Of a DNA stretch of 11,960 nt, positions 1,795 through 10,568 are shown in pieces (position 1 is the first letter of the stretch; each line of letters opens with the position of its first letter). The notes beneath the pieces are model-generated. The model was not told the origin of the DNA, made no database searches, and saw only the letters and a program-made list of their open reading frames with translations. Source of the DNA: Jatrophihabitans sp. (lineage in GTDB: Bacteria > Actinomycetota > Actinomycetes > Mycobacteriales > Jatrophihabitantaceae). Location: the NCBI GenBank assembly GCA_025966255.1, contig JAOPVG010000133.1:1-11960 (forward strand), read 5' to 3'. A program made the translations under genes and the position numbers.

Positions 1795-3036
1795 TCACCG
1801 GTTGGAGAGCAGGAGCGGCATCACGGTGACCGGTGACCCCGAAGCAACCTCGGTGACGTCCTCGTCGATCACGACGAGGCAGTTGGACAGCGCCAGGGAC
1901 GCAATCAGGTGCGAGCCGGGGCCGCCGACGAACGACACGCTATAGCCGCCGTTCGTCTCGCGGTGGAGCACCCCGCGGCGGTACTGCCGCACGCCATTGG
2001 GACTCTTCGCGCCCTCGAGCGCGGTCGCCTGAACGGTGGCCCGCTGCAGGCTGCGCTTGCCGAGCAACTTACGGATCGCTGGACGGACGAACGCCTCGAA
2101 CGACACCAGGCTGCTGACCGGATTGCCGGGCAGGCAGAAGATCGGCACCTTGTCGCCGAGGTGCCCGAAGCCCTGCGGCTTTCCGGGCTGCATCGCGACC
2201 TTCATGAATTCGACGGTGCCAAGTTCGGTGAGCGCCTCTTTGACAATGTCGTACGCGCCCATGCTCACGCCGCCGCTGGTGACCAGCACGTCGGCGCGAA
2301 GGAGTTGGTTCTCGAGGGTGTCGAGCAGCTTGGCGTGATCGTCGGCGACGATACCGATGCGGCGCGAGTCGGCGCCGGCGTCCTTCGCCGCTGCGGCAAT
2401 CATGTAGGAGTTGGAGTCGATCACCTCGCCGAACGCGGGGCGGTGGCCGACCTCGATCAGCTCGCTGCCCGTCGACAGGATGATCACGCGGGGACGGGGC
2501 CGGACGAGCACGCGGTCGCGTCCGATGGCTGCGAGCAGGGCGAGCTGCTGCGGGCCGAGCGCTGCGCCCGCGCCGAGGGCGGGGGCGCCGCCGGCCAGAT
2601 CCTCGCCCGTCCGGCGCAGGCATTCGCCGCTGCGGACCGGCCGGTTGATGGCGACGCGGGCGAGGCCGCCGTCGGTGTCCTCGATCGGGATCACGGCGTC
2701 GGCGCCGGCCGGGATGGGCGCGCCGGTCATGATGCGCATCGCGAGGCCGGGGCCCATGCCTGATCGGGACTTCGCGCCGGCCGCGATGTCCCCGACCACC
2801 TGCAGCCGGGTGGGGTTCTCCCGGCTCGCGTCACGGGTGTCGATCGCGCGGACTGCGTAGCCGTCCATCGCCGAGTTGTCGAAGCTCGGCAGCGGGAAGT
2901 CGGCGCTGACGTCCTCGGCCAGCAGCAGACCCTGGGCGTCGAGAAGGGTCAGCTCGATGGGTTCGAGCGACCCGACGCCGTCGAGCACGGTGGCCAGGTG
3001 CTCGTCGACCGTCCGAAGGCGATCGTCGTCAGCCAC
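1795..3036 (-). CDS. glp: MoeA/gephyrin-like protein, probably Glp
   Basis: A 413-residue MoeA-family protein. In cofactor synthesis MoeA uses adenylated molybdopterin and molybdate. In Corynebacterium the gene in this neighbourhood encodes Glp, a gephyrin-like protein that binds the FtsZ C-terminus and the membrane receptor GlpR. Motifs: LPSFDNSAMDGYAV (49-62), IMTGAPIPAGADAVIPIED (102-120), STGSEL (188-193), SGGVSMGAYDIVKEAL (254-269) and FCLPGNPVSSLVSFEAFVRP (300-319). The sequence looks catalytically intact, including the Asp of SGGVSxGxxD. The start is chosen at GTG 3034-3036 because GAGGAG lies 8 bases upstream; a TTG at 3061-3063 overlapping the galU stop lacks that support. It is coupled to galU (23-base gap) and rimJ (3-base gap). 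Division Glp versus cofactor MoeA cannot be settled by motif alone; synteny favours Glp. Confidence 0.9.
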   Translation of the reverse strand: MADDDRLRTVDEHLATVLDGVGSLEPIELTLLDAQGLLLAEDVSADFPLPSFDNSAMDGYAVRAIDTRDASRENPTRLQVVGDIAAGAKSRSGMGPGLAMRIMTGAPIPAGADAVIPIEDTDGGLARVAINRPVRSGECLRRTGEDLAGGAPALGAGAALGPQQLALLAAIGRDRVLVRPRPRVIILSTGSELIEVGHRPAFGEVIDSNSYMIAAAAKDAGADSRRIGIVADDHAKLLDTLENQLLRADVLVTSGGVSMGAYDIVKEALTELGTVEFMKVAMQPGKPQGFGHLGDKVPIFCLPGNPVSSLVSFEAFVRPAIRKLLGKRSLQRATVQATALEGAKSPNGVRQYRRGVLHRETNGGYSVSFVGGPGSHLIASLALSNCLVVIDEDVTEVASGSPVTVMPLLLSNR

Positions 3037-3044
3037 GAATGCGT

Positions 3045-3050
3045 CTCCTC
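3045..3050 (-). promoter_or_regulatory. Ribosome binding site fixing the moeA/glp start
   Basis: GAGGAG on the minus strand, 8 bases before GTG 3036-3034. The same motif and spacing precede mogA in this window, which supports this start over the upstream TTG. Confidence 0.75.
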
Positions 3051-3059
3051 GATCTCGGG

Positions 3060-3953
3060 TCAATCGGCCTGAGGCTCATACTCCCGCAACCATGCCCGGA
3101 AGTCCGCTCCGATGTCGGGATGTCGGACGGCGAGCTGAACCACTGCCTTGACGTACTCGAGGCGATCGCCGGTGTCGTAGCGCCGGCCCCGGAAGACGAC
3201 GCCGTGTACAGGAGTGCCGGCGCGGCAGAGGGCGCGCATGGCGTCGGTCAGCTGGATCTCGCCGCCACTGCCCTCGGTGGTGCCGCGCAGCGCTTCGAAG
3301 ATCTCCGGTGGCAGGATGTAGCGGCCGATGATGGCCAGCGTGCTCGGCGCCTCGTCGGGGTCCGGCTTCTCGACGAGATCAGTGATCGCGACGACGTCCC
3401 CGTGCGGGTCGGCGCCCTCGGCCGGGACGACGCAGCCGTACTTGCGGATGTCCTGGCGCGGCACGTCGATCAGCCCGAGGACGATGCCGCCGTGCTCGGC
3501 GTGCACGTCCAGCATCGGCCCGAGCAACGCGTCGCGATCGTCGATGAGGTCGTCGGGCAGGAGAACGGCGACCGCCTCGCCGGCGGCGAAGTCCTCGCCG
3601 TGTCCGACCGCATGACCGAGACCGCGCGGATCCTTCTGTTCGACATAGTCGAACGCCGCGAGCTCCGTGGGACGCCGCACCGCGGCGAGACCGTCGGTGT
3701 CGCCCTTCGCCTCGAGTGCGGCTTCGAGGTCGGGACTGGGCGCGAAGTACTCGGCGATGGCGGCCTTGCCCGGGCTGACCACGAGCAGGACGTCGGTGAT
3801 CTCGTTTCCGGCGGCCTCGGCGACGACGAGCTCGAGCGCCGGCGTGGTGACGATCGGCGCGAGCTCCTTGGGCACCGCCTTGGTGAGCGGCAGGAAGCGG
3901 GTGCCACGTCCGGCCGCCGGGATCAGCGCCTTGCGGACGCGGTTGCCTGGCAT
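3060..3953 (-). CDS. galU: UTP-glucose-1-phosphate uridylyltransferase
   Basis: A 297-residue cytoplasmic enzyme making UDP-glucose from UTP and glucose-1-phosphate, feeding cell-wall and capsular glycans and trehalose synthesis. Visible family features are the nucleotide-binding signature IPAAGRGTRFLPLTKAVPKEL (11-31), YVEQKDPRGLGHAV (103-116), the LPDD metal-site motif (132-135), LVEKPDPDEAPSTLAIIGRYIL (193-214), GSGGEIQLTDAM (228-239) and FRGRRYDTGDRLEYVKA (254-270). Length is normal. The start is ATG. There is no well-placed Shine-Dalgarno, but TAGGCT ends exactly six bases before the ATG, suggesting leaderless transcription. It is the first gene of the galU-glp-rimJ-sepX cluster and is divergent from the 5-FCL gene. 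Confidence 0.95.
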   Translation of the reverse strand: MPGNRVRKALIPAAGRGTRFLPLTKAVPKELAPIVTTPALELVVAEAAGNEITDVLLVVSPGKAAIAEYFAPSPDLEAALEAKGDTDGLAAVRRPTELAAFDYVEQKDPRGLGHAVGHGEDFAAGEAVAVLLPDDLIDDRDALLGPMLDVHAEHGGIVLGLIDVPRQDIRKYGCVVPAEGADPHGDVVAITDLVEKPDPDEAPSTLAIIGRYILPPEIFEALRGTTEGSGGEIQLTDAMRALCRAGTPVHGVVFRGRRYDTGDRLEYVKAVVQLAVRHPDIGADFRAWLREYEPQAD

Positions 3954-3985: not shown

Positions 3986-4537
3986 ATGCACCAAGCCGAT
4001 GACGTCACCGCGGAGAAGGCCCGGCTGCGAGCGGAGCTGAGCGCGGTCCGCGCCGAGCGTTCGCCGGAGCGGCTCGACGAGGCTCGCGGGGCCATCCGTT
4101 CGGTCGTGCTGGCGCAGAGCGAGTCGGCCGGGTGGCGCTGCGTCGCGGCCTACGTCGCGTTGCGCACCGAGCCAGGGTCGGCCGAGTTGCTGGCCGAACT
4201 GGCCTCGCGCGGGGTTCGGGTGCTGGTGCCGGTGACGCTGGCCGATCGCGACCTCGACTGGGCGGAATGGCTTCCTGACGGGACAGGTGAGCCGCTTGGC
4301 CTGGAGGCGATCGCATCGGCGGATGTGGTGCTCGTCCCGGCGCTCGCGGTGGCGGCGGACGGGACGCGGCTCGGCCGCGGCGGCGGCTCGTACGACCGGG
4401 CGCTGGCTCGCGCCGCGCCGGACGCCCCTCGGGTTGCATTGCTCTTCGACGGGGAGCAGGTGCCGACGCTGCCCCGCGAATCTTGGGACCTGCCGGTCAC
4501 CGATGTGGTGTCGCCGACGGGCTGGCGGCGGCTATAG
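3986..4537 (+). CDS. 5-formyltetrahydrofolate cyclo-ligase
   Basis: A 183-residue enzyme of the 5-FCL family, which converts 5-formyl-THF to 5,10-methenyl-THF using ATP and so returns a storage folate to the one-carbon pool. Diagnostic features are the N-terminal helix with AEKARLRAEL (9-18, basic residues for the polyglutamate/ATP site), AAYVALRTEPGSAELL (54-69), DVVLVPALAVAADGTRLGRGGGSYDRAL (113-140, the signature ATP-binding loop), and the C-terminal TDVVSPTGW (172-180). Length is typical. The start is ATG without a Shine-Dalgarno. The orthologue in M. tuberculosis (Rv0992c) is likewise divergent from galU. Its TAG stop overlaps the first G of the ECF-type promoter of the next gene. Confidence 0.94.
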   Translation: MHQADDVTAEKARLRAELSAVRAERSPERLDEARGAIRSVVLAQSESAGWRCVAAYVALRTEPGSAELLAELASRGVRVLVPVTLADRDLDWAEWLPDGTGEPLGLEAIASADVVLVPALAVAADGTRLGRGGGSYDRALARAAPDAPRVALLFDGEQVPTLPRESWDLPVTDVVSPTGWRRL

Positions 4538-4564
4538 GGAATACCGCTGTCGCGGCAATCCGTT
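4537..4564 (+). promoter_or_regulatory. ECF sigma factor (SigH/SigR-type) promoter
   Basis: GGGAAT at 4537-4542 and CGTT at 4561-4564. Counting GGAAT (4538-4542) to CGTT, the spacer is 18 bases. This matches the thiol-stress sigma factor consensus GGAAT-N18-(C/G)GTT of Mycobacterium SigH and Streptomyces SigR. Predicted transcription start is near 4571, giving a leader of about 67 bases for the Ruc-like gene. Confidence 0.7.
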
Positions 4565-4589
4565 AGCAGTCGTAGCCTTAGAGTGCCAG
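4563..4589. promoter_or_regulatory. CIRCE operator (HrcA repressor site)
   Basis: TTAGCAGTC (4563-4571), a spacer of exactly 9 bases, then GAGTGCCAG (4581-4589). The consensus is TTAGCACTC-N9-GAGTGCTAA, so 15 of 18 arm positions match (left 8/9, right 7/9). It overlaps the -10 of the ECF-type promoter and the predicted transcription start, an ideal position for repression. Confidence 0.82.
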
Positions 4590-4637
4590 CCCGCATCGGG
4601 CGCCGGCCCAGGATCGGTACGTCGGAGGATTACGCCC

Positions 4638-5072
4638 ATGCCCACCTATCAGTACGTGTGCACGAACCCGGCATGTGCCGAGGACTTCGAGCGCGTCCAG
4701 TCCTTCACCGATCCCGCGGCCAGCGAGTGCCCGGTTTGCGGCGGCGCGGTGCGCAAGAAGTTCTCGGCCGTAGGCGTGGTGTTCAAGGGCTCCGGCTTCT
4801 ACCGCACCGACAGCCGCTCGGAGAACGCCGCGAAGGCCAGCAAGGAATCGGGCGACTCGTCCGCGAAGGACTCGGGTTCCAAGGACTCGGGTTCCAAGGA
4901 CTCCGGGTCGAAGGACGCCGGCTCCAAGGACTCCGGGTCGAAGGACGCGGCCGCGAAGGGATCGTCGTCGGCCAAGGACCCCTCGTCCAGCTCGAAGTCT
5001 TCGTCCTCGTCGAACGGTTCGTCTTCGTCGTCGTCCGCCGCGAAGTCCGGCAAGGCCGCGGCGCCCGCCTGA
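4638..5072 (+). CDS. ruc: Ruc/FmdB-family zinc-ribbon protein with disordered Ser/Lys/Asp tail
   Basis: 144 residues. The N-terminal FmdB/CxxC_CxxC regulatory-type zinc ribbon (1-60) begins MPTYQYVCTNPACAEDF and has cysteines at 8, 13, 31 and 34, then the conserved VGVVFKGSGFYRTDSR (about 49-64). The rest is low-complexity: six KDSGS-like repeats (about 77-106), then Ser-rich sequence ending GKAAAPA. This matches M. tuberculosis Rv0991c (Ruc), a redox-switched chaperone with an unstructured C-terminus that cooperates with Hsp70; zinc-cysteine oxidation activates it. The first pair is CX4C rather than the usual CX2C. ATG has GGAGG nine bases upstream (4624-4628). The SigH/R-type promoter and CIRCE site fit induction by oxidative and heat stress. 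The chaperone role is inferred from family and regulation. Confidence 0.88.
   Translation: MPTYQYVCTNPACAEDFERVQSFTDPAASECPVCGGAVRKKFSAVGVVFKGSGFYRTDSRSENAAKASKESGDSSAKDSGSKDSGSKDSGSKDAGSKDSGSKDAAAKGSSSAKDPSSSSKSSSSSNGSSSSSSAAKSGKAAAPA
4866..4955 (+). repeat. Six tandem 15-bp units inside the Ruc-like gene
   Basis: Units begin AAGGAC at 4866, 4881, 4896, 4911, 4926 and 4941 and encode KD-S/A-G/A-S/A. Units 1 and 2 are identical, and units 3 and 5 are identical, which points to recent duplication of single and double units. Confidence 0.9.
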
Positions 5073-5101
5073 GCATGACCCTCTGACAATCCCGTCTGCG
5101 G

Positions 5102-5129
5102 TCGTCCACAGCCGGCCCGGGCGTCCACA
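5102..5129 (+). other. Two DnaA-box-like motifs
   Basis: TCGTCCACA (5102-5110) and GCGTCCACA (5121-5129) lie in the same orientation 19 bases apart. The actinomycete DnaA box is TTGTCCACA, so they match 8/9 and 7/9. They sit in the 107-base gap 5073-5179, which otherwise holds only the predicted -10 of the next gene. Confidence 0.35.
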
Positions 5130-5167
5130 GTTCCTGCGTTCGGGACTGCTGGCAGCTCGTTGCTTCC

Positions 5168-5173
5168 TAGGGT
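5168..5173 (+). promoter_or_regulatory. -10 element of a leaderless promoter for the SAF gene (predicted)
   Basis: TAGGGT (TANNNT) ends six bases before ATG 5180, the same geometry as at galU and 5-FCL. The overlapping AGGGTGG could instead act as a weak Shine-Dalgarno. No strong -35 is visible. Confidence 0.4.
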
Positions 5174-5179
5174 GGCCAC

Positions 5180-5848
5180 ATGCCTCGTTCGCTTCGTCGC
5201 TCGCTGCTGCGGGTCGGCCGCTGGCCTCGGATGTGCGCCGCCGGCATCTGCTTGTTGCTGGCCCTCGGTAGCGCACTCGGTGCCTCCCGCAACCGACCGC
5301 GGGCACCGGCCGTCCCCACCGTTGCCGTGGTCGTGGCCGCGCGGATTCTTCCCGCCGGGCACGTGCTCGCCCGGCCGGATCTGGCCGTAGCTCGATGGCC
5401 GCCCGGTCTTCGTCCCAGCGGCACGGTGCCTGATGTGCGTCGGCTGGTCGGCGAGCGACTGGCCGGGCCGGTTCAGGTCAGGGAGGCAGTGACGTCAGGT
5501 CGTCTGGTCGGCGCCGACCTGACCACCGGGCTGGCGGCCGGCAGCGTTGCGATACCGGTTGCGCTCGACGACGCGCATGCAGCCGACCTCGTCCGTACCG
5601 GCGATCGGGTCGAACTGCTCGCCTCGCCGCGTCCATCGGACGTCCCTACCAACCGGCCGGCCGACAGCGCGCGGGTGACCGTGGTGGCGACGCGCCTGCT
5701 CGTGCTGGCCGTCCTACGCGGTACAGATCCGGTCGCGCCAAGCGGGATGGGCACAGAGATCGTCGTGGCCGCCAACCGGGCCACCGCACTGGAAATCGCC
5801 CGGCACAGATCCACTCAAATCTTCACGCTGGTGCTGGATTCGCCCTAG
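5180..5848 (+). CDS. SAF-domain membrane-anchored protein (CpaB/RcpC-like)
   Basis: 222 residues. A basic N-terminus (MPRSLRRSLLRVGRWPR) leads into a single membrane helix (about 18-35). A SAF domain follows (about 48-112: VVVAARILPAGHVLARPDLAV ... RRLVGERLAGPVQVREAVTSGRLVG), then a CpaB/RcpC-type second domain (about 120-220) with AIPVALDDAHAADLVRTGDRVELLA. CpaB proteins assemble Flp/Tad pili in the periplasm, but no other pilus gene is in this window. Orphan SAF proteins next to fmdB and mscL are often seen in actinobacteria and their role is not established. Start ATG. Most of the chain should lie outside the membrane. Confidence 0.75.
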   Translation: MPRSLRRSLLRVGRWPRMCAAGICLLLALGSALGASRNRPRAPAVPTVAVVVAARILPAGHVLARPDLAVARWPPGLRPSGTVPDVRRLVGERLAGPVQVREAVTSGRLVGADLTTGLAAGSVAIPVALDDAHAADLVRTGDRVELLASPRPSDVPTNRPADSARVTVVATRLLVLAVLRGTDPVAPSGMGTEIVVAANRATALEIARHRSTQIFTLVLDSP

Positions 5849-7000: not shown

Positions 7001-7501
7001 TCAGGGGCAGTTGACCCATTCGTCGGTGCCGTCGGTGAACATTTGCCGCTTCCAGATCGGCAGGCGCCGCTTGACCTCGTCGACGAGCCGGCCGCACACG
7101 TCGAAGGCTTCCTGCCGGTGCGCGGTCGCGACGGCGGCGACCAGCGCCACGTCGCCCACGGCGAGCACGCCGACTCGATGACTGACGGCCAGCGCCAGCA
7201 CGCCGGGTTCGGCGGCGAACTCTGTCGCGACGTCGGTCAGCACCTGCTCGGCGCTCGGGTGGCCCTGGTACTCGAGTTCGACGACGTCGCGCCCGTGATC
7301 GTGTTCGCGCACGACACCGCAGAACAGGACCCGGGCACCGGCGCGCACATGCTCGACCGCCGCTTCGTGCACGCTCGTCTCGATGGGACCGGACGAGACA
7401 CTCACCATTCGCAACACCGGATCGACGTCGCTGCCCGGCGTCTCCGCCACCGCATTGGCCACCTCGGCCCGCGCCGCCTTCTCCATCGAGAATTCACTCA
7501 T
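7001..7501 (-). CDS. moaE: Molybdopterin synthase catalytic subunit MoaE
   Basis: 166 residues. With MoaD it inserts dithiolene sulfur into cyclic pyranopterin monophosphate to give molybdopterin. Features: VLFCGVVREHDHGRDVVELEYQGHPSAE (58-85), SHRVGVLAVGD (107-117) with the conserved His-Arg, and DEVKRRLPIWKRQMFTDGTDEWVNC (141-165), including lysines 144 and 151 equivalent to the catalytic pair. The first 30 or so residues are an unconserved extension; a start at Met32 is possible, but the ATG overlaps the mogA stop in an ATGA arrangement, supporting the long form. It is last in the moaC-mogA-moaE operon. No moaD is in the window. Confidence 0.95.
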   Translation of the reverse strand: MSEFSMEKAARAEVANAVAETPGSDVDPVLRMVSVSSGPIETSVHEAAVEHVRAGARVLFCGVVREHDHGRDVVELEYQGHPSAEQVLTDVATEFAAEPGVLALAVSHRVGVLAVGDVALVAAVATAHRQEAFDVCGRLVDEVKRRLPIWKRQMFTDGTDEWVNCP

Positions 7502-7986
7502 ACGCCACCTCCCGGCTGATGGTCGCCGCCGCCCAACTGGTCAACCGCGTGCTGCAGCAGCGGAGCAAGCACCGCCATCCCATCCCGCACCCCGCCCGGC
7601 GATCCGGGCAGCGTCACCACTAGCGAAGCACCGATCGTCCCAGCCACGCCACGCGACAGCACCGAAGTCGGCACCTGGCCACGGGACGCGAGCCGCAGCG
7701 ACTCCGCGATCCCGGGCACCAGCTTCTCGAGCATCGGCGCGACGGCTTCGGGCGTGACATCGGTCGGCGTGAGCCCGGTCCCGCCGGTCGTCAGCACCGC
7801 CGATGCGCCAGCGATCAGCGCATCACCGACCGCCGCCCGGATCGTCTCGACCTGGTCCGGCACGATCCGCCGCAGGACGACCTCGTGCCCCGCCTCACTG
7901 AGCAGCGCCACGAGCAACTCGCCGCTGTCGTCCGGCCGCTCGCCGCTGGCCGAGCGGTTGGAGCAGGTGATGACCGCGACCTTCAC
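7498..7986 (-). CDS. mogA: Molybdopterin adenylyltransferase MogA/MoaB
   Basis: 162 residues of the MogA/MoaB/Cnx1G fold, which activates molybdopterin by adenylylation before metal insertion by MoeA. Features: VAVITCSNRSASGERPDDSG (3-22), the signature TTGGTGLTPTDVTPEA (66-81) that binds the pterin, and the LPGSPGG loop (126-132). GTG at 7986 is chosen because GAGGAG lies 8 bases upstream and the codon overlaps the moaC stop by four bases (GTGA). An ATG at 8013 would extend 27 bases into moaC. The downstream moaE overlaps its stop in the same way. Confidence 0.93.
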   Translation of the reverse strand: MKVAVITCSNRSASGERPDDSGELLVALLSEAGHEVVLRRIVPDQVETIRAAVGDALIAGASAVLTTGGTGLTPTDVTPEAVAPMLEKLVPGIAESLRLASRGQVPTSVLSRGVAGTIGASLVVTLPGSPGGVRDGMAVLAPLLQHAVDQLGGGDHQPGGGV

Positions 7987-8495
7987 TCGGCGTTCTCCTC
8001 GCTCGCCGTCCATTCCCCCGACCGGCCACCCGCCTTGGCCAACAGCCGGACGTCGGTGAGCCGGGCCGACCGGTCAACGGCCTTGACCATGTCGTAGAGC
8101 GCCAGCCCGGCGACGACGACGGAGGTCAGGGCCTCCATCTCCACGCCGGTGCGATCGGCGGTGCGCGTCGTCGCCGTGATGTCCACGCCGTCCTCGAGCA
8201 GCTCCAGATCGACGGTCACGCCGTGCAGCGCCACCGGATGGCAGAGCGGGACGAGATCGGGCGTGCGTTTGGCCGCGGCAATCCCGGCGATGCGGGCCAC
8301 CGCGATCGCGTCACCCTTCGGCAAGCCGTCGCGACGCAGTAGCGCCATGACCTCGGGCGTAGTGACAAAGCGGGCCCTCGCGGTCGCGGTGCGGGCGGTG
8401 ACGTCCTTGCCGGAGACGTCCACCATCCGCGCGGCGCCGTGTTCGTCGACGTGGGTGAGGTCGCCGGGGGAGATCACAGGATCGACAGTAGTCAA
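7983..8495 (-). CDS. moaC: Cyclic pyranopterin monophosphate synthase MoaC
   Basis: 170 residues. It acts after MoaA in the first step of molybdenum cofactor synthesis, converting 3',8-cyclo-GTP to cPMP. Motifs: GAARMVDVSGKDVTAR (20-35), KGDAIAVARIAGIAAAKRTPDLVPLCHPV (60-88, with the substrate-binding LCHP) and TGVEMEALTSVVVAGLALYDMVKA (116-139) with the Asp and Lys of DMxKA used in catalysis. The start is TTG at 8495, supported by AGGAA (8504-8508) eight bases upstream. A GTG at 8477 is an alternative; an extension to 8597 is not conserved. It is the first gene of the operon and divergent from the S53 peptidase (117-base gap with no clear promoter except a TACCCT at 8562-8567 on the plus strand). 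MoaA is not in the window. Confidence 0.92.
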   Translation of the reverse strand: MTTVDPVISPGDLTHVDEHGAARMVDVSGKDVTARTATARARFVTTPEVMALLRRDGLPKGDAIAVARIAGIAAAKRTPDLVPLCHPVALHGVTVDLELLEDGVDITATTRTADRTGVEMEALTSVVVAGLALYDMVKAVDRSARLTDVRLLAKAGGRSGEWTASEENAE

Positions 8496-8503
8496 AGGGC
8501 GCG

Positions 8504-8508
8504 TTCCT
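8504..8508 (-). promoter_or_regulatory. Ribosome binding site supporting a TTG start for moaC
   Basis: AGGAA on the minus strand, 8 bases from TTG 8495-8493, the same spacing as the sites of mogA and glp. Confidence 0.6.
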
Positions 8509-8612
8509 GCCAGACCGGAACCTGACACATATCGGGGCACCCACGACGAATGCCGCGGACCTACCCTTCCGCCCAGGCTCCGACCCCGCGAGCCCATAAC
8601 ACAGGAGGCACC

Positions 8613-10568
8613 GTGAACGTTGCTCTTCGAGGGCTATCCGTCCTCGTAGGCGGCACCACGGTCGCGATTGCCCTGTCGACGCAGGCGCTGGCAACCCCGG
8701 CCCAGAATGCATCGGCGAGCGTCAAGACCGTCTACAGCTGCAGTCAGAAGGTGACGGCAAAGCATTACTCCTGCTTCGCCGAGCGCCGCAGCGACCTGGG
8801 CTTCACGTCCAAGGCGACGCTCGACGCCAGTCCACAGGCCCTGCCGAGCGGCTACGGTCCGGCCAACTTGCAGTCGGCCTACAAGCTGCCCTCGTCGAGT
8901 GCCGGCAGCGGCCAGCGCATCTACATCGTCGACGCGTACGACGACCCCAATGCTGAGTCCGACCTTGCGGCCTACCGCGCCCAGTACGGGCTGGCGGCCT
9001 GCACGACCGCGAACGGCTGCTTCCAGAAACTGAACCAGAACGGCGCGACGAGCCCGCTGCCCGTCGGTGACACCGGGTGGGCCGGCGAGATCTCGCTCGA
9101 CCTGGACATGGCATCGGCGATCTGCCCGAACTGCGGAATCACGCTGATCGAGGCCAACGACCCGTCCGACAACCTGTTCGCGGCGGTCAAAAAGGCCACC
9201 GACCTCGGCGCGAAGTTCGTGTCGATGAGTTGGGGCGGGGCCGAAGCCGGCAGCGAGCCCTCCTACGACGCGCAGTATTTCAAGACCTCCGGCGTCGTCT
9301 ACACCGCCTCGACCGGTGACAGCGGCTACAGCGCGGGCGTCATCTATCCGGCCACCGGCGCGAGCGTCGTCGCCGTCGGCGGCACGTCGCTGAACACCTC
9401 GACCAACACCCGGGGCTGGACCGAGTCGGTCTGGAGCGGCGCCGGGTCGGGATGCTCGGGCAGCGTGGCCAAGCCGTCCTGGCAGAGCGGGATCTCCGCC
9501 TGCACCAGGCGCGCGACCTCTGACGTCTCGGCGGTGGCCGACCCGGCCACGGGCGTCGCGGTCTACCAGACCTACGGTGGCTCGGGCTGGGCCGTCTACG
9601 GCGGAACCAGTGCCTCGGCCCCGATCATCGCGTCGGTCTATGCGCTCAACGGCGCGCCGGCTGCGGCGGACAAGCCGGCCTCGGAGCCGTACGCACACAC
9701 CGGGAACCTGTTCGACGTGACGACCGGCTCCAACGGCACGTGCTCGCCGACCACGCTCTGCAAGGGCGGTGCCGGCTGGGACGGCCCGACCGGGCTCGGC
9801 ACGCCGAACGGCACGGCCGCCTTCAAGGCTGGCAGCGGTGGCGGCGGCAACACCGTCACGGTTACCAACCCGGGCAACAAGACGGGCACGGTGGGCACGG
9901 CGACCAGCCTGCAGATCACCGCGTCCGACTCGGGTGGGCTACCGCTGACCTACACCGCGACCGGCCTGCCAACCGGACTGTCGATCAGCTCGTCCGGACT
10001 CATCTCGGGAACGCCGTCGGCCGCGGGCACCTTCACGGTCACGGTGACGGCGACGGACAGCACCAACGCCAGCGGCAGTGCGACGTTCACCTGGACCATC
10101 AGCGGTGGCGGCGGTGGCGGCAGCTGCAGTGGCCAGAAGCTTCTCAACCCGGGCTTCGAGTCGGGCGCGGCCAGCTGGACGCAGACGGCAGGTGTGATCA
10201 ACACCGACGGCGCGCATAAGCGCACCGGTGTCGGCTACGCCTGGCTGGACGGGTACGGCACGACGCACACCGACTCGATCTCGCAGTCGGTGACGATTCC
10301 CGCCGGATGCGCGGCATCGTTGACGTACTACCTGTACATCAGCAGCTCCGAGGGCACGTCGACCGCGTACGACAAGTTGACGGTGACGGTGAACGGCACG
10401 ACGGTCCAGTCGTTCTCGAACATCAACAAGGGCACCGGGTATGTGGCTCGGTCGGTCAGCCTCTCGAGCTACGCGGGCAAGACGGTGGCGATCAAGTGGA
10501 CCGGCACGGAGGACTCCTCGGTGGCGACCTCGTTCTTCGTCGATGACACGGCGCTGACGCTGAGCTAG
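8613..10568 (+). CDS. Secreted S53 (sedolisin) peptidase with Ig-like and C-terminal beta-sandwich domains
   Basis: 651 residues. A signal peptide (1-27, cleavage likely after ALA) is followed by a short N-terminal region and a sedolisin catalytic domain (about 80-405). The catalytic Glu-Asp pair is E159 and D163 in GWAGEISLDLDMAS. The oxyanion Asp is D236 in STGDSGY, and the nucleophile is S333 in YGGTSASAP. SMSWGG (204-209) and the calcium-site-like GAGWDGPTGLGTPN (386-399) are also present. A putative Ig-type domain (about 415-497, SGGLPLTYTATGLPTGLSI) follows, then a GGGGGG linker and a galactose-binding-like beta-sandwich (about 505-651, LLNPGFESGAASW). GTG start with AGGAGG four bases upstream. 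There is no room for the usual prodomain of about 170 residues: only some 50 residues separate the signal peptide from the catalytic domain. It is probably an acid-active endopeptidase; substrate unknown. Confidence 0.9.
   Translation: MNVALRGLSVLVGGTTVAIALSTQALATPAQNASASVKTVYSCSQKVTAKHYSCFAERRSDLGFTSKATLDASPQALPSGYGPANLQSAYKLPSSSAGSGQRIYIVDAYDDPNAESDLAAYRAQYGLAACTTANGCFQKLNQNGATSPLPVGDTGWAGEISLDLDMASAICPNCGITLIEANDPSDNLFAAVKKATDLGAKFVSMSWGGAEAGSEPSYDAQYFKTSGVVYTASTGDSGYSAGVIYPATGASVVAVGGTSLNTSTNTRGWTESVWSGAGSGCSGSVAKPSWQSGISACTRRATSDVSAVADPATGVAVYQTYGGSGWAVYGGTSASAPIIASVYALNGAPAAADKPASEPYAHTGNLFDVTTGSNGTCSPTTLCKGGAGWDGPTGLGTPNGTAAFKAGSGGGGNTVTVTNPGNKTGTVGTATSLQITASDSGGLPLTYTATGLPTGLSISSSGLISGTPSAAGTFTVTVTATDSTNASGSATFTWTISGGGGGGSCSGQKLLNPGFESGAASWTQTAGVINTDGAHKRTGVGYAWLDGYGTTHTDSISQSVTIPAGCAASLTYYLYISSSEGTSTAYDKLTVTVNGTTVQSFSNINKGTGYVARSVSLSSYAGKTVAIKWTGTEDSSVATSFFVDDTALTLS

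What the first reader, a model, noticed from the sequence alone, without database searches (positions are those of the whole stretch)
4537..4589. Stress promoter and CIRCE operator fused upstream of a Ruc-like chaperone
GGAAT-N18-CGTT (SigH/SigR type) at 4538-4564 is overlapped by a CIRCE element at 4563-4589 (15/18 arm matches, exact 9-base spacer). The -10 GTT shares bases with the operator's left arm. This predicts dual control: thiol-stress sigma for activation and HrcA for heat-labile repression, converging on a chaperone that is itself a redox switch. As I recall, Ruc in M. tuberculosis is linked to the same stresses, so the logic may be conserved across distant actinobacteria.
Basis: partly seen in the sequence, partly recalled or inferred. 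Interest (0 to 1): 0.75.

Follow-up and report, generated by a model that had tools for sequence, protein, structure and literature searches.

The report
Dual stress switch before Ruc chaperone
A soil-type actinobacterium's gene for a redox-sensitive chaperone carries a thiol-stress promoter that overlaps a heat-shock repressor site; the same layout is already known at this gene in the tuberculosis bacterium, and here the repressor site is found before most sampled copies of the gene in its bacterial class while the promoters around it differ.

Summary
GGGAATA-N17-CGTT (4537-4564) is the only such site in the 3.79 Mb assembly. The CIRCE (4563-4589, 15/18) is one of three sites with at most 3 mismatches; the other two are in tandem before groEL. 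The downstream gene (4638-5072) is a Ruc/FmdB-family gene in the galU / 5-FTHF-ligase / ruc order. The assembly encodes HrcA, SigH and an adjacent anti-sigma protein, and has SigH-type motifs before trxB, an htpX-like gene and a sigma-70 gene.

The interpretation (SigH activation, HrcA repression) is very likely correct but not new in kind: Becker 2020 reports overlapping SigH and HrcA sites at M. tuberculosis ruc.

New here: (1) CIRCE stands upstream of ruc in 135 of 150 sampled Actinomycetes loci, 41 of 45 families. (2) The SigH/SigR promoter is patchy; where present its -10 TT most often is the first TT of CIRCE. (3) 46 of 135 loci have a housekeeping-type motif there instead or as well. 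(4) In the window's family the ruc CIRCE is the asymmetric one (22 of 24 genomes). (5) Four other actinobacteria have the composite before hsp20. No bench data.

The parts
4537..4543 (+). SigH/SigR-type -35 element GGGAATA (first G is the last base of the upstream stop codon)
   Evidence: matches published GGAAYR (passage)
4561..4564 (+). SigH/SigR-type -10 element CGTT, 17 bases after GGGAATA
   Evidence: GGAATA-N18-GTT fits the published N17-18 spacing
4563..4571 (+). CIRCE left arm TTAGCAGTC (8/9; position 7 is G instead of C)
4572..4580 (+). CIRCE 9-base spacer GTAGCCTTA
4581..4589 (+). CIRCE right arm GAGTGCCAG (7/9)
4624..4629 (+). probable ribosome binding site GGAGGA
   Evidence: sequence; inference
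4638..5072 (+). ruc / FmdB-family gene, 144 aa: four-cysteine zinc ribbon plus Ser/Lys/Asp-rich tail
   Evidence: PF09723 46.1 bits, TIGR02605 57 bits; 62% identity over 60 residues to a Mycobacterium-like homologue
3986..4537 (+). 5-formyltetrahydrofolate cyclo-ligase gene, upstream neighbour
   Evidence: PF01812, TIGR02727
3060..3953 (-). galU-like nucleotidyltransferase gene, syntenic neighbour
   Evidence: PF00483; TIGR01099 258.6 bits, below its cut-off 326.8

Best explanation
4537-4589 is a composite promoter-operator for the chaperone gene ruc. Under thiol or heat stress SigH/SigR is released from its zinc-containing anti-sigma factor and RNA polymerase starts from GGGAATA-N17-CGTT. In unstressed cells HrcA on the CIRCE covers the -10 and start region and excludes polymerase; heat or loss of HrcA lifts the block. 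Full output therefore needs both sigma release and HrcA release. Shown: the motifs, their rarity, the overlap, the gene, genes for both regulators, and conservation. Inferred: binding, start site and stress response, by analogy with M. tuberculosis ruc where both regulators are documented. Evolutionary part, inferred from comparison: the CIRCE is the fixed element at ruc, while SigH/R-type and housekeeping-type promoters come and go around it.
For: Rare sites in the own assembly with low or zero controls. HrcA, SigH and anti-sigma-like genes present. SigH-type motifs also lie upstream of trxB (GGGAAT-N17-GGTT), an htpX-like M48 peptidase, a sigma-70 gene with regions 1.2-4 and a Fe-S biosynthesis gene. 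Other CIRCEs lie before groEL and between hrcA and dnaJ. CIRCE of at least 14/18 at ruc in 135 of 150 loci; the reversed pattern reaches at most 13. SigH-type scores of at least 8.5/10 pile up in one register: 21 loci at offset 0 (11 f1, 6 f14, 3 f31, 1 f7), 5 at -2, at most 3 at any other offset from -150 to +60. Fused pattern in 44 of 394 class genomes, control 0. Asymmetric fused pattern in the 84,980-species collection: 39 stretches, 28 with ruc just downstream. Published dual control in M. tuberculosis.
Against: No expression, footprint or start-site data for this organism. The SigH motif is weak at ruc in G040 of the same genus (6.5/10) and absent in most families sampled, so it is not under universal constraint. 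The 18-base spacing is the minority spacing (4 of 25) in M. tuberculosis. The operator has a non-consensus base in the left arm that could lower HrcA affinity. Several of the 11 SigH-type sites have no stress gene that I recognised downstream (C168 on both strands, C135, C173). Score thresholds were set after looking at the data.
Confidence: 0.85

Rival explanations
1. Only HrcA control matters: the CIRCE acts on a housekeeping promoter as it may in many families, and the SigH-like hexamers are an incidental or decayed match.
For: Most sampled families have CIRCE without a SigH motif in register; 46 of 135 loci have T[GT]GAC-N17..19-[TC]ANN[AT]T ending at the CIRCE (shuffle mean 0.09, max 2).
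Against: In the window itself that housekeeping motif is not found, nor a sigma-70 consensus site in 4300-5200, whereas the full SigH motif is unique in the genome and recurs in the same register in four sampled families.
Confidence: 0.1
2. Only SigH control matters: the CIRCE here is a degenerate relic (15/18, palindrome broken at position 7).
For: Left-arm position 7 is G, not C; in this family the other CIRCEs read on both strands, i.e. keep C.
Against: The other 17 arm positions each carry one of the two commonest bases of the 135 loci, and G7 is itself recurrent (62 of 135). Caveat: those loci were selected for at least 14/18.
Confidence: 0.04
3. Chance juxtaposition of two weak motifs in GC-rich DNA.
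For: The loose SigH core GGAAT-N17..19-GTT is common by chance.
Against: Genome-wide counts and controls, conservation of register, and 28 of 29 actinobacterial hits of the asymmetric fused pattern at ruc in a gene-blind scan.
Confidence: 0.01

Closest known systems
M. tuberculosis ruc (Rv0991c) control region (Becker et al. 2020 mBio, PMC7448276; it cites Stewart 2002 and Sharp 2016)
   Same: Overlapping SigH and HrcA sites upstream of a Ruc chaperone; a Mycobacterium-like genome (G007) has the same neighbours galU and 5-FTHF ligase
   Different: In the 7 sampled loci of the Mycobacterium-like genus g18 the SigH -10 TT lies 2 bases upstream of the CIRCE start (CTAGCACTT-type arm) with 17-base spacing; in the window the TT is shared, spacing is 18 and the left arm carries G7. 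The M. tuberculosis sequence itself was not inspected.
CIRCE/HrcA operators of groESL and groEL
   Same: Inverted repeat with 9-base spacer, HrcA as the presumed repressor
   Different: The own groEL operators are in tandem and symmetric at position 7; GGGAATA-N16/17-CGTT does not occur at them
SigR/SigH regulon promoters (GGAAYR-N17-18-GTT, Sharp 2016)
   Same: Exact consensus match
   Different: Here the -10 is merged with a repressor operator

Membership tests
CIRCE element | 9-9-9 inverted repeat TTAGCACTC-N9-GAGTGCTAA with few mismatches | tested here: met
   15/18, exact spacer; 3 such sites in the assembly, control 0
CIRCE element | bound by HrcA | not testable with these tools
   hrcA gene present; binding not tested
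SigH/SigR promoter | GGAAYR-N17-18-GTT | tested here: met
   GGAATA-N18-GTT (consensus)
SigH/SigR promoter | cognate ECF sigma factor with zinc anti-sigma partner in the genome | tested here: met
   TIGR02947 363.5 bits; overlapping gene for a 97-residue zf-HC2 protein
SigH/SigR promoter | sigma-dependent transcription start | not testable with these tools
   no transcript data
Ruc chaperone family | N-terminal four-cysteine zinc ribbon | tested here: met
   PF09723, TIGR02605; CxxxxC and CxxC
Ruc chaperone family | disordered C-terminal half | tested here: inconclusive
   Ser/Lys/Asp/Gly-rich tail from about residue 60; disorder itself not predicted
Ruc chaperone family | oxidation-activated holdase | not testable with these tools
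   reported for Rv0991c
M. tuberculosis-type dual-control ruc promoter | SigH and HrcA sites overlap upstream of ruc | tested here: met
   by motif; published case
M. tuberculosis-type dual-control ruc promoter | HrcA removal by the Pup-proteasome needed for full induction | not tested
   pup and proteasome genes not searched

The most novel reading that the evidence does not exclude
At ruc the HrcA operator is an old fixed point of the class Actinomycetes and the promoters are interchangeable parts: housekeeping and SigH/SigR -10 elements are repeatedly placed so that they share the operator's first T or TT, because TTAGCACTC already supplies the conserved end of both -10 elements. The same composite has been assembled independently before hsp20. 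In the Jatrophihabitans-like family the ruc operator alone carries a broken left half-site, which would let ruc derepress earlier than groEL.
Probability: 0.4. Interest if true: 0.5.

Novelty: new member of a known kind. Interest (0 to 1): 0.42.

Why it matters
It widens a one-species observation (overlapping SigH and HrcA sites at M. tuberculosis ruc) into a comparison across a bacterial class, points to harmless relatives in which competition between an ECF sigma factor and HrcA could be measured, and offers a simple case of promoter turnover around a fixed operator.

Tried and rejected
Wrong frame first: read the ruc gene from 4640 and found no family; corrected to 4638. In one search minus-strand loci were not turned round and gave false low CIRCE scores; corrected.

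Is the G7 half-site strictly ruc-specific? Not across the order: 80 G7 matches in 78 of 200 genomes (the reversed control has one match in each of 11 genomes by my count); 61 lie just upstream of ruc, 6 elsewhere, and 13 were not placed by the script because one search did not list their ruc; of the 13, G160 is at ruc and G128 too, by a matching named record (L219). Two of the six elsewhere precede groES-like (G014) and dnaJ-like (G022) frames, recognised by eye. Is G7 tied to the SigH promoter? No: the 13 f16 loci have G7 without SigH in register.

Is the G211 fused hit a composite? No: its GGAAC lies in a groEL-like frame on the other strand. The 10 non-actinobacterial stretches precede, by eye, hrcA-like (4), groEL-, groES-, hsp20- and clpB-like frames (1 each) or nothing clear (2); treated as CIRCE plus chance GGAAY. 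GGGAAT-N18/19-CGTT gives 8 genome sites; none of the other seven preceded a stress gene that I recognised.

Literature: a SigR-controlled FmdB/ruc gene in Streptomyces was not found in the held library; a 2012 paper on SigR regulons is recalled and was not looked up. That the class-wide pattern is unpublished rests only on searches of an open-access library.

Full report
WHAT IS THERE. From 4535 the window reads: stop codon TAG (end of a 5-FTHF-ligase gene), whose last G opens GGGAATA (4537-4543), 17 bases, CGTT (4561-4564), and a CIRCE whose first two bases are the TT of that CGTT (4563-4589). In the notation of Sharp 2016 (PMC4803200, passages seen) this is GGAAYR-N18-GTT. The ruc start codon is at 4638, 48 bases after the CIRCE, with GGAGGA at 4624-4629. 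The 144-residue product has the FmdB/Ruc zinc ribbon and a Ser/Lys/Asp-rich tail. It is 62% identical over 60 residues to the homologue in a Mycobacterium-like genome that also has the galU / 5-FTHF ligase / ruc order.

MORE THAN CHANCE. Own assembly: 3,786,989 bases in 631 contigs, 79.5% complete. CIRCE with at most 3 mismatches: 3 sites, two in tandem upstream of a groEL frame and this one; reversed control 0. A further, weaker CIRCE lies between hrcA and dnaJ. GGGAATA-N16/17-CGTT: one site, this one, control 0. GGGAAYR-N17/18-GTT: 11 sites, control 2; downstream frames include an M48 (htpX-like) peptidase, a sigma factor with regions 1.2 to 4, a Fe-S biosynthesis protein, a Bax-inhibitor-like protein and ZnuA, while others have nothing that I recognise. 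trxB has GGGAAT-N17-GGTT upstream. That thiol-stress genes such as trxB and htpX are SigR/SigH targets elsewhere is recalled, except trxB1 and sigE, which the passage of Sharp 2016 lists. HrcA, SigH and a zinc-finger protein gene overlapping sigH are encoded.

WHO IT IS. The locus of G159, a genome of the window's own genus, shares its middle 400 bases exactly with a record titled Jatrophihabitans sp. (JAICKR010000108.1). Ten further loci were matched to named records in the same way: nine of this family (titles Jatrophihabitans, Pseudonocardiales, Frankiales or Actinomycetota) and one Rhodococcoides kyotonense. The window is therefore from an uncultured Jatrophihabitans-like actinobacterium. 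Labels such as f7, f31, g75 are tool handles; g18 as Mycobacterium and g75 as Streptomyces are my inference from genome size and numbers.

CONSERVATION, GENE FIRST. A match to the window's Ruc was found in 196 of 200 genomes of the order and a match to its first 60 residues in 232 of 236 of the class. I read the DNA upstream of 150 loci: 90 of the order (the 30 best matches supplied, rich in f1 and f16, and 60 picked by eye for spread over families) and 60 of the class picked likewise from the listed places; weaker matches were not listed and so not sampled. A CIRCE of at least 14/18 stands within 450 bases upstream in 135 of 150, in 41 of 45 families; f19, f36, f43, f46 have none among their 1, 4, 3 and 2 loci. 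Two of the 15 loci without it (L056, L143) had less than 450 bases because the contig ends. The reversed pattern reaches at most 13/18.

A SigH-type promoter (at least 8.5 of 10 against GGGAAT-N17/18-CGTT) was sought from -150 to +60 around each CIRCE. It sits with its -10 TT on the first TT of the CIRCE in 21 loci (11 f1, 6 f14, 3 f31, 1 f7), at -2 in 5 (f7), at -24 in 3 (f29), and once each at ten other offsets. With a threshold of 7.5 the shared register holds in 27 loci of 15 genera. The thresholds were set after seeing the data, and related loci are not independent; the four families are the better count. Against universality: the motif is weak at ruc in G040, of the window's own genus, and absent in most families.

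CONSERVATION, GENE BLIND. GGAAY-N18/19-GTTNGCANTC-N9-GAGTGCNA occurs in 44 of 394 class genomes, control 0. Thirty-seven are of genus g75 (39 sampled); in the 18 of these whose ruc position one search lists, the element ends 11-13 bases before the ruc start; the other 19 were not checked. Of the remaining seven, three are at ruc (G000, G160, G027), three precede hsp20 (G417, G263, G410) and one (G211) is a groEL coincidence. The version with G or A at left-arm position 7 was scanned over the 84,980-species collection: 39 stretches, 29 actinobacterial by title. Of these 29, 28 have ruc within 300 bases downstream (Jatrophihabitans and relatives, Rhodococcus/Rhodococcoides, four Geodermatophilaceae MAGs; one is cut by the contig end) and one, Herbihabitans, has hsp20.

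A HOUSEKEEPING-TYPE MOTIF IN THE SAME PLACE. With the loci aligned on the CIRCE, the group without the shared-register SigH motif and without the Mycobacterium-like loci (101 loci, 80 genera) shows A at -4 with a genus-weighted frequency of 0.78, fitting the A of a -10 hexamer whose last T is the first T of CIRCE. The motif T[GT]GAC-N17..19-[TC]ANN[AT]T ends near the CIRCE start in 46 of 135 loci (30 exactly on the first T, 10 at -3, 3 at -10, 3 at -6 or -5) against a mean of 0.09 and a maximum of 2 in 200 shuffles. The motif was written after seeing the alignment and the shuffles keep only base composition, so these numbers describe rather than test; 89 of 135 loci lack it. In 8 of 21 f1 loci and in all 3 f31 loci it coexists with the SigH motif; in some f1 relatives TGGACG directly abuts the SigH -35, so two promoters would be interleaved over one operator. 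In the window GCTATA stands where those have TGGACG, and no housekeeping motif is found.

THE ASYMMETRIC HALF-SITE. Left-arm position 7 is G in 62, C in 70 and A in 3 of 135 ruc operators, while its mirror position is G in 134. In the window's family (24 genomes) TNGCANTC-N9-GAGTGCNA gives, by my sum over the table, 84 sites read on both strands and 23 read on one strand only (reversed control: 3 matches in 2 genomes). G171 (no ruc found, 63% complete) and G100 (ruc operator with C7) have no one-strand site, G065 has two (one of them not CIRCE-like), the other 21 have one. The one-strand CIRCE is the ruc operator in all 22: 19, G001 and G030, G128 by the named record L219. In the rest of the order the pattern is common at ruc but not exclusive. 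Whether it lowers HrcA affinity is inference.

MECHANISM AND NOVELTY. Becker 2020 (PMC7448276; passages, discussion section) states that HrcA represses and SigH activates ruc in M. tuberculosis, that the two binding regions overlap, that Ruc is low at 37 C and high in an hrcA mutant, and rises further on heat in that mutant. Sharp 2016 lists Rv0991c at 40.3 in its table of SigH-dependent expression (passage). A review repeats the HrcA part (PMC8223512, passages). The window therefore holds a new member of a known kind. What I did not find in print, in the searches named in Tried and rejected, is the class-wide CIRCE at ruc, the patchy register-locked SigH element, the housekeeping-type motif in the same place, the family-wide asymmetry of the ruc operator and the hsp20 composites.

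Noticed in passing
window 7498-8597 (-): MoaC (7983-8597) and a MoCF_biosynth-domain protein (7498-8013) lie together on the minus strand; a Glp/MoeA gene is at 1795-3063 of the same window.
   Followed up: no
window 5180-5848 (+): SAF-domain, CpaB-like protein (below the NCBIfam cut-off) directly downstream of ruc; in a g75 genome (L176) an MTAP-like and a SAF/CpaB-like frame, recognised by eye only, also follow ruc.
   Followed up: no
window 8550-10568 (+): 672-residue protein with a He_PIG putative Ig domain and a weak MAM match below its cut-off; function unclear.
   Followed up: no
L172, L173, L174, L229: hsp20 genes preceded by a SigH/SigR-CIRCE composite in four other actinobacteria.
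   Followed up: partly
L255, within 300 bases upstream of 1489: trxB of the window's genome has GGGAAT-N17-GGTT upstream.
   Followed up: partly
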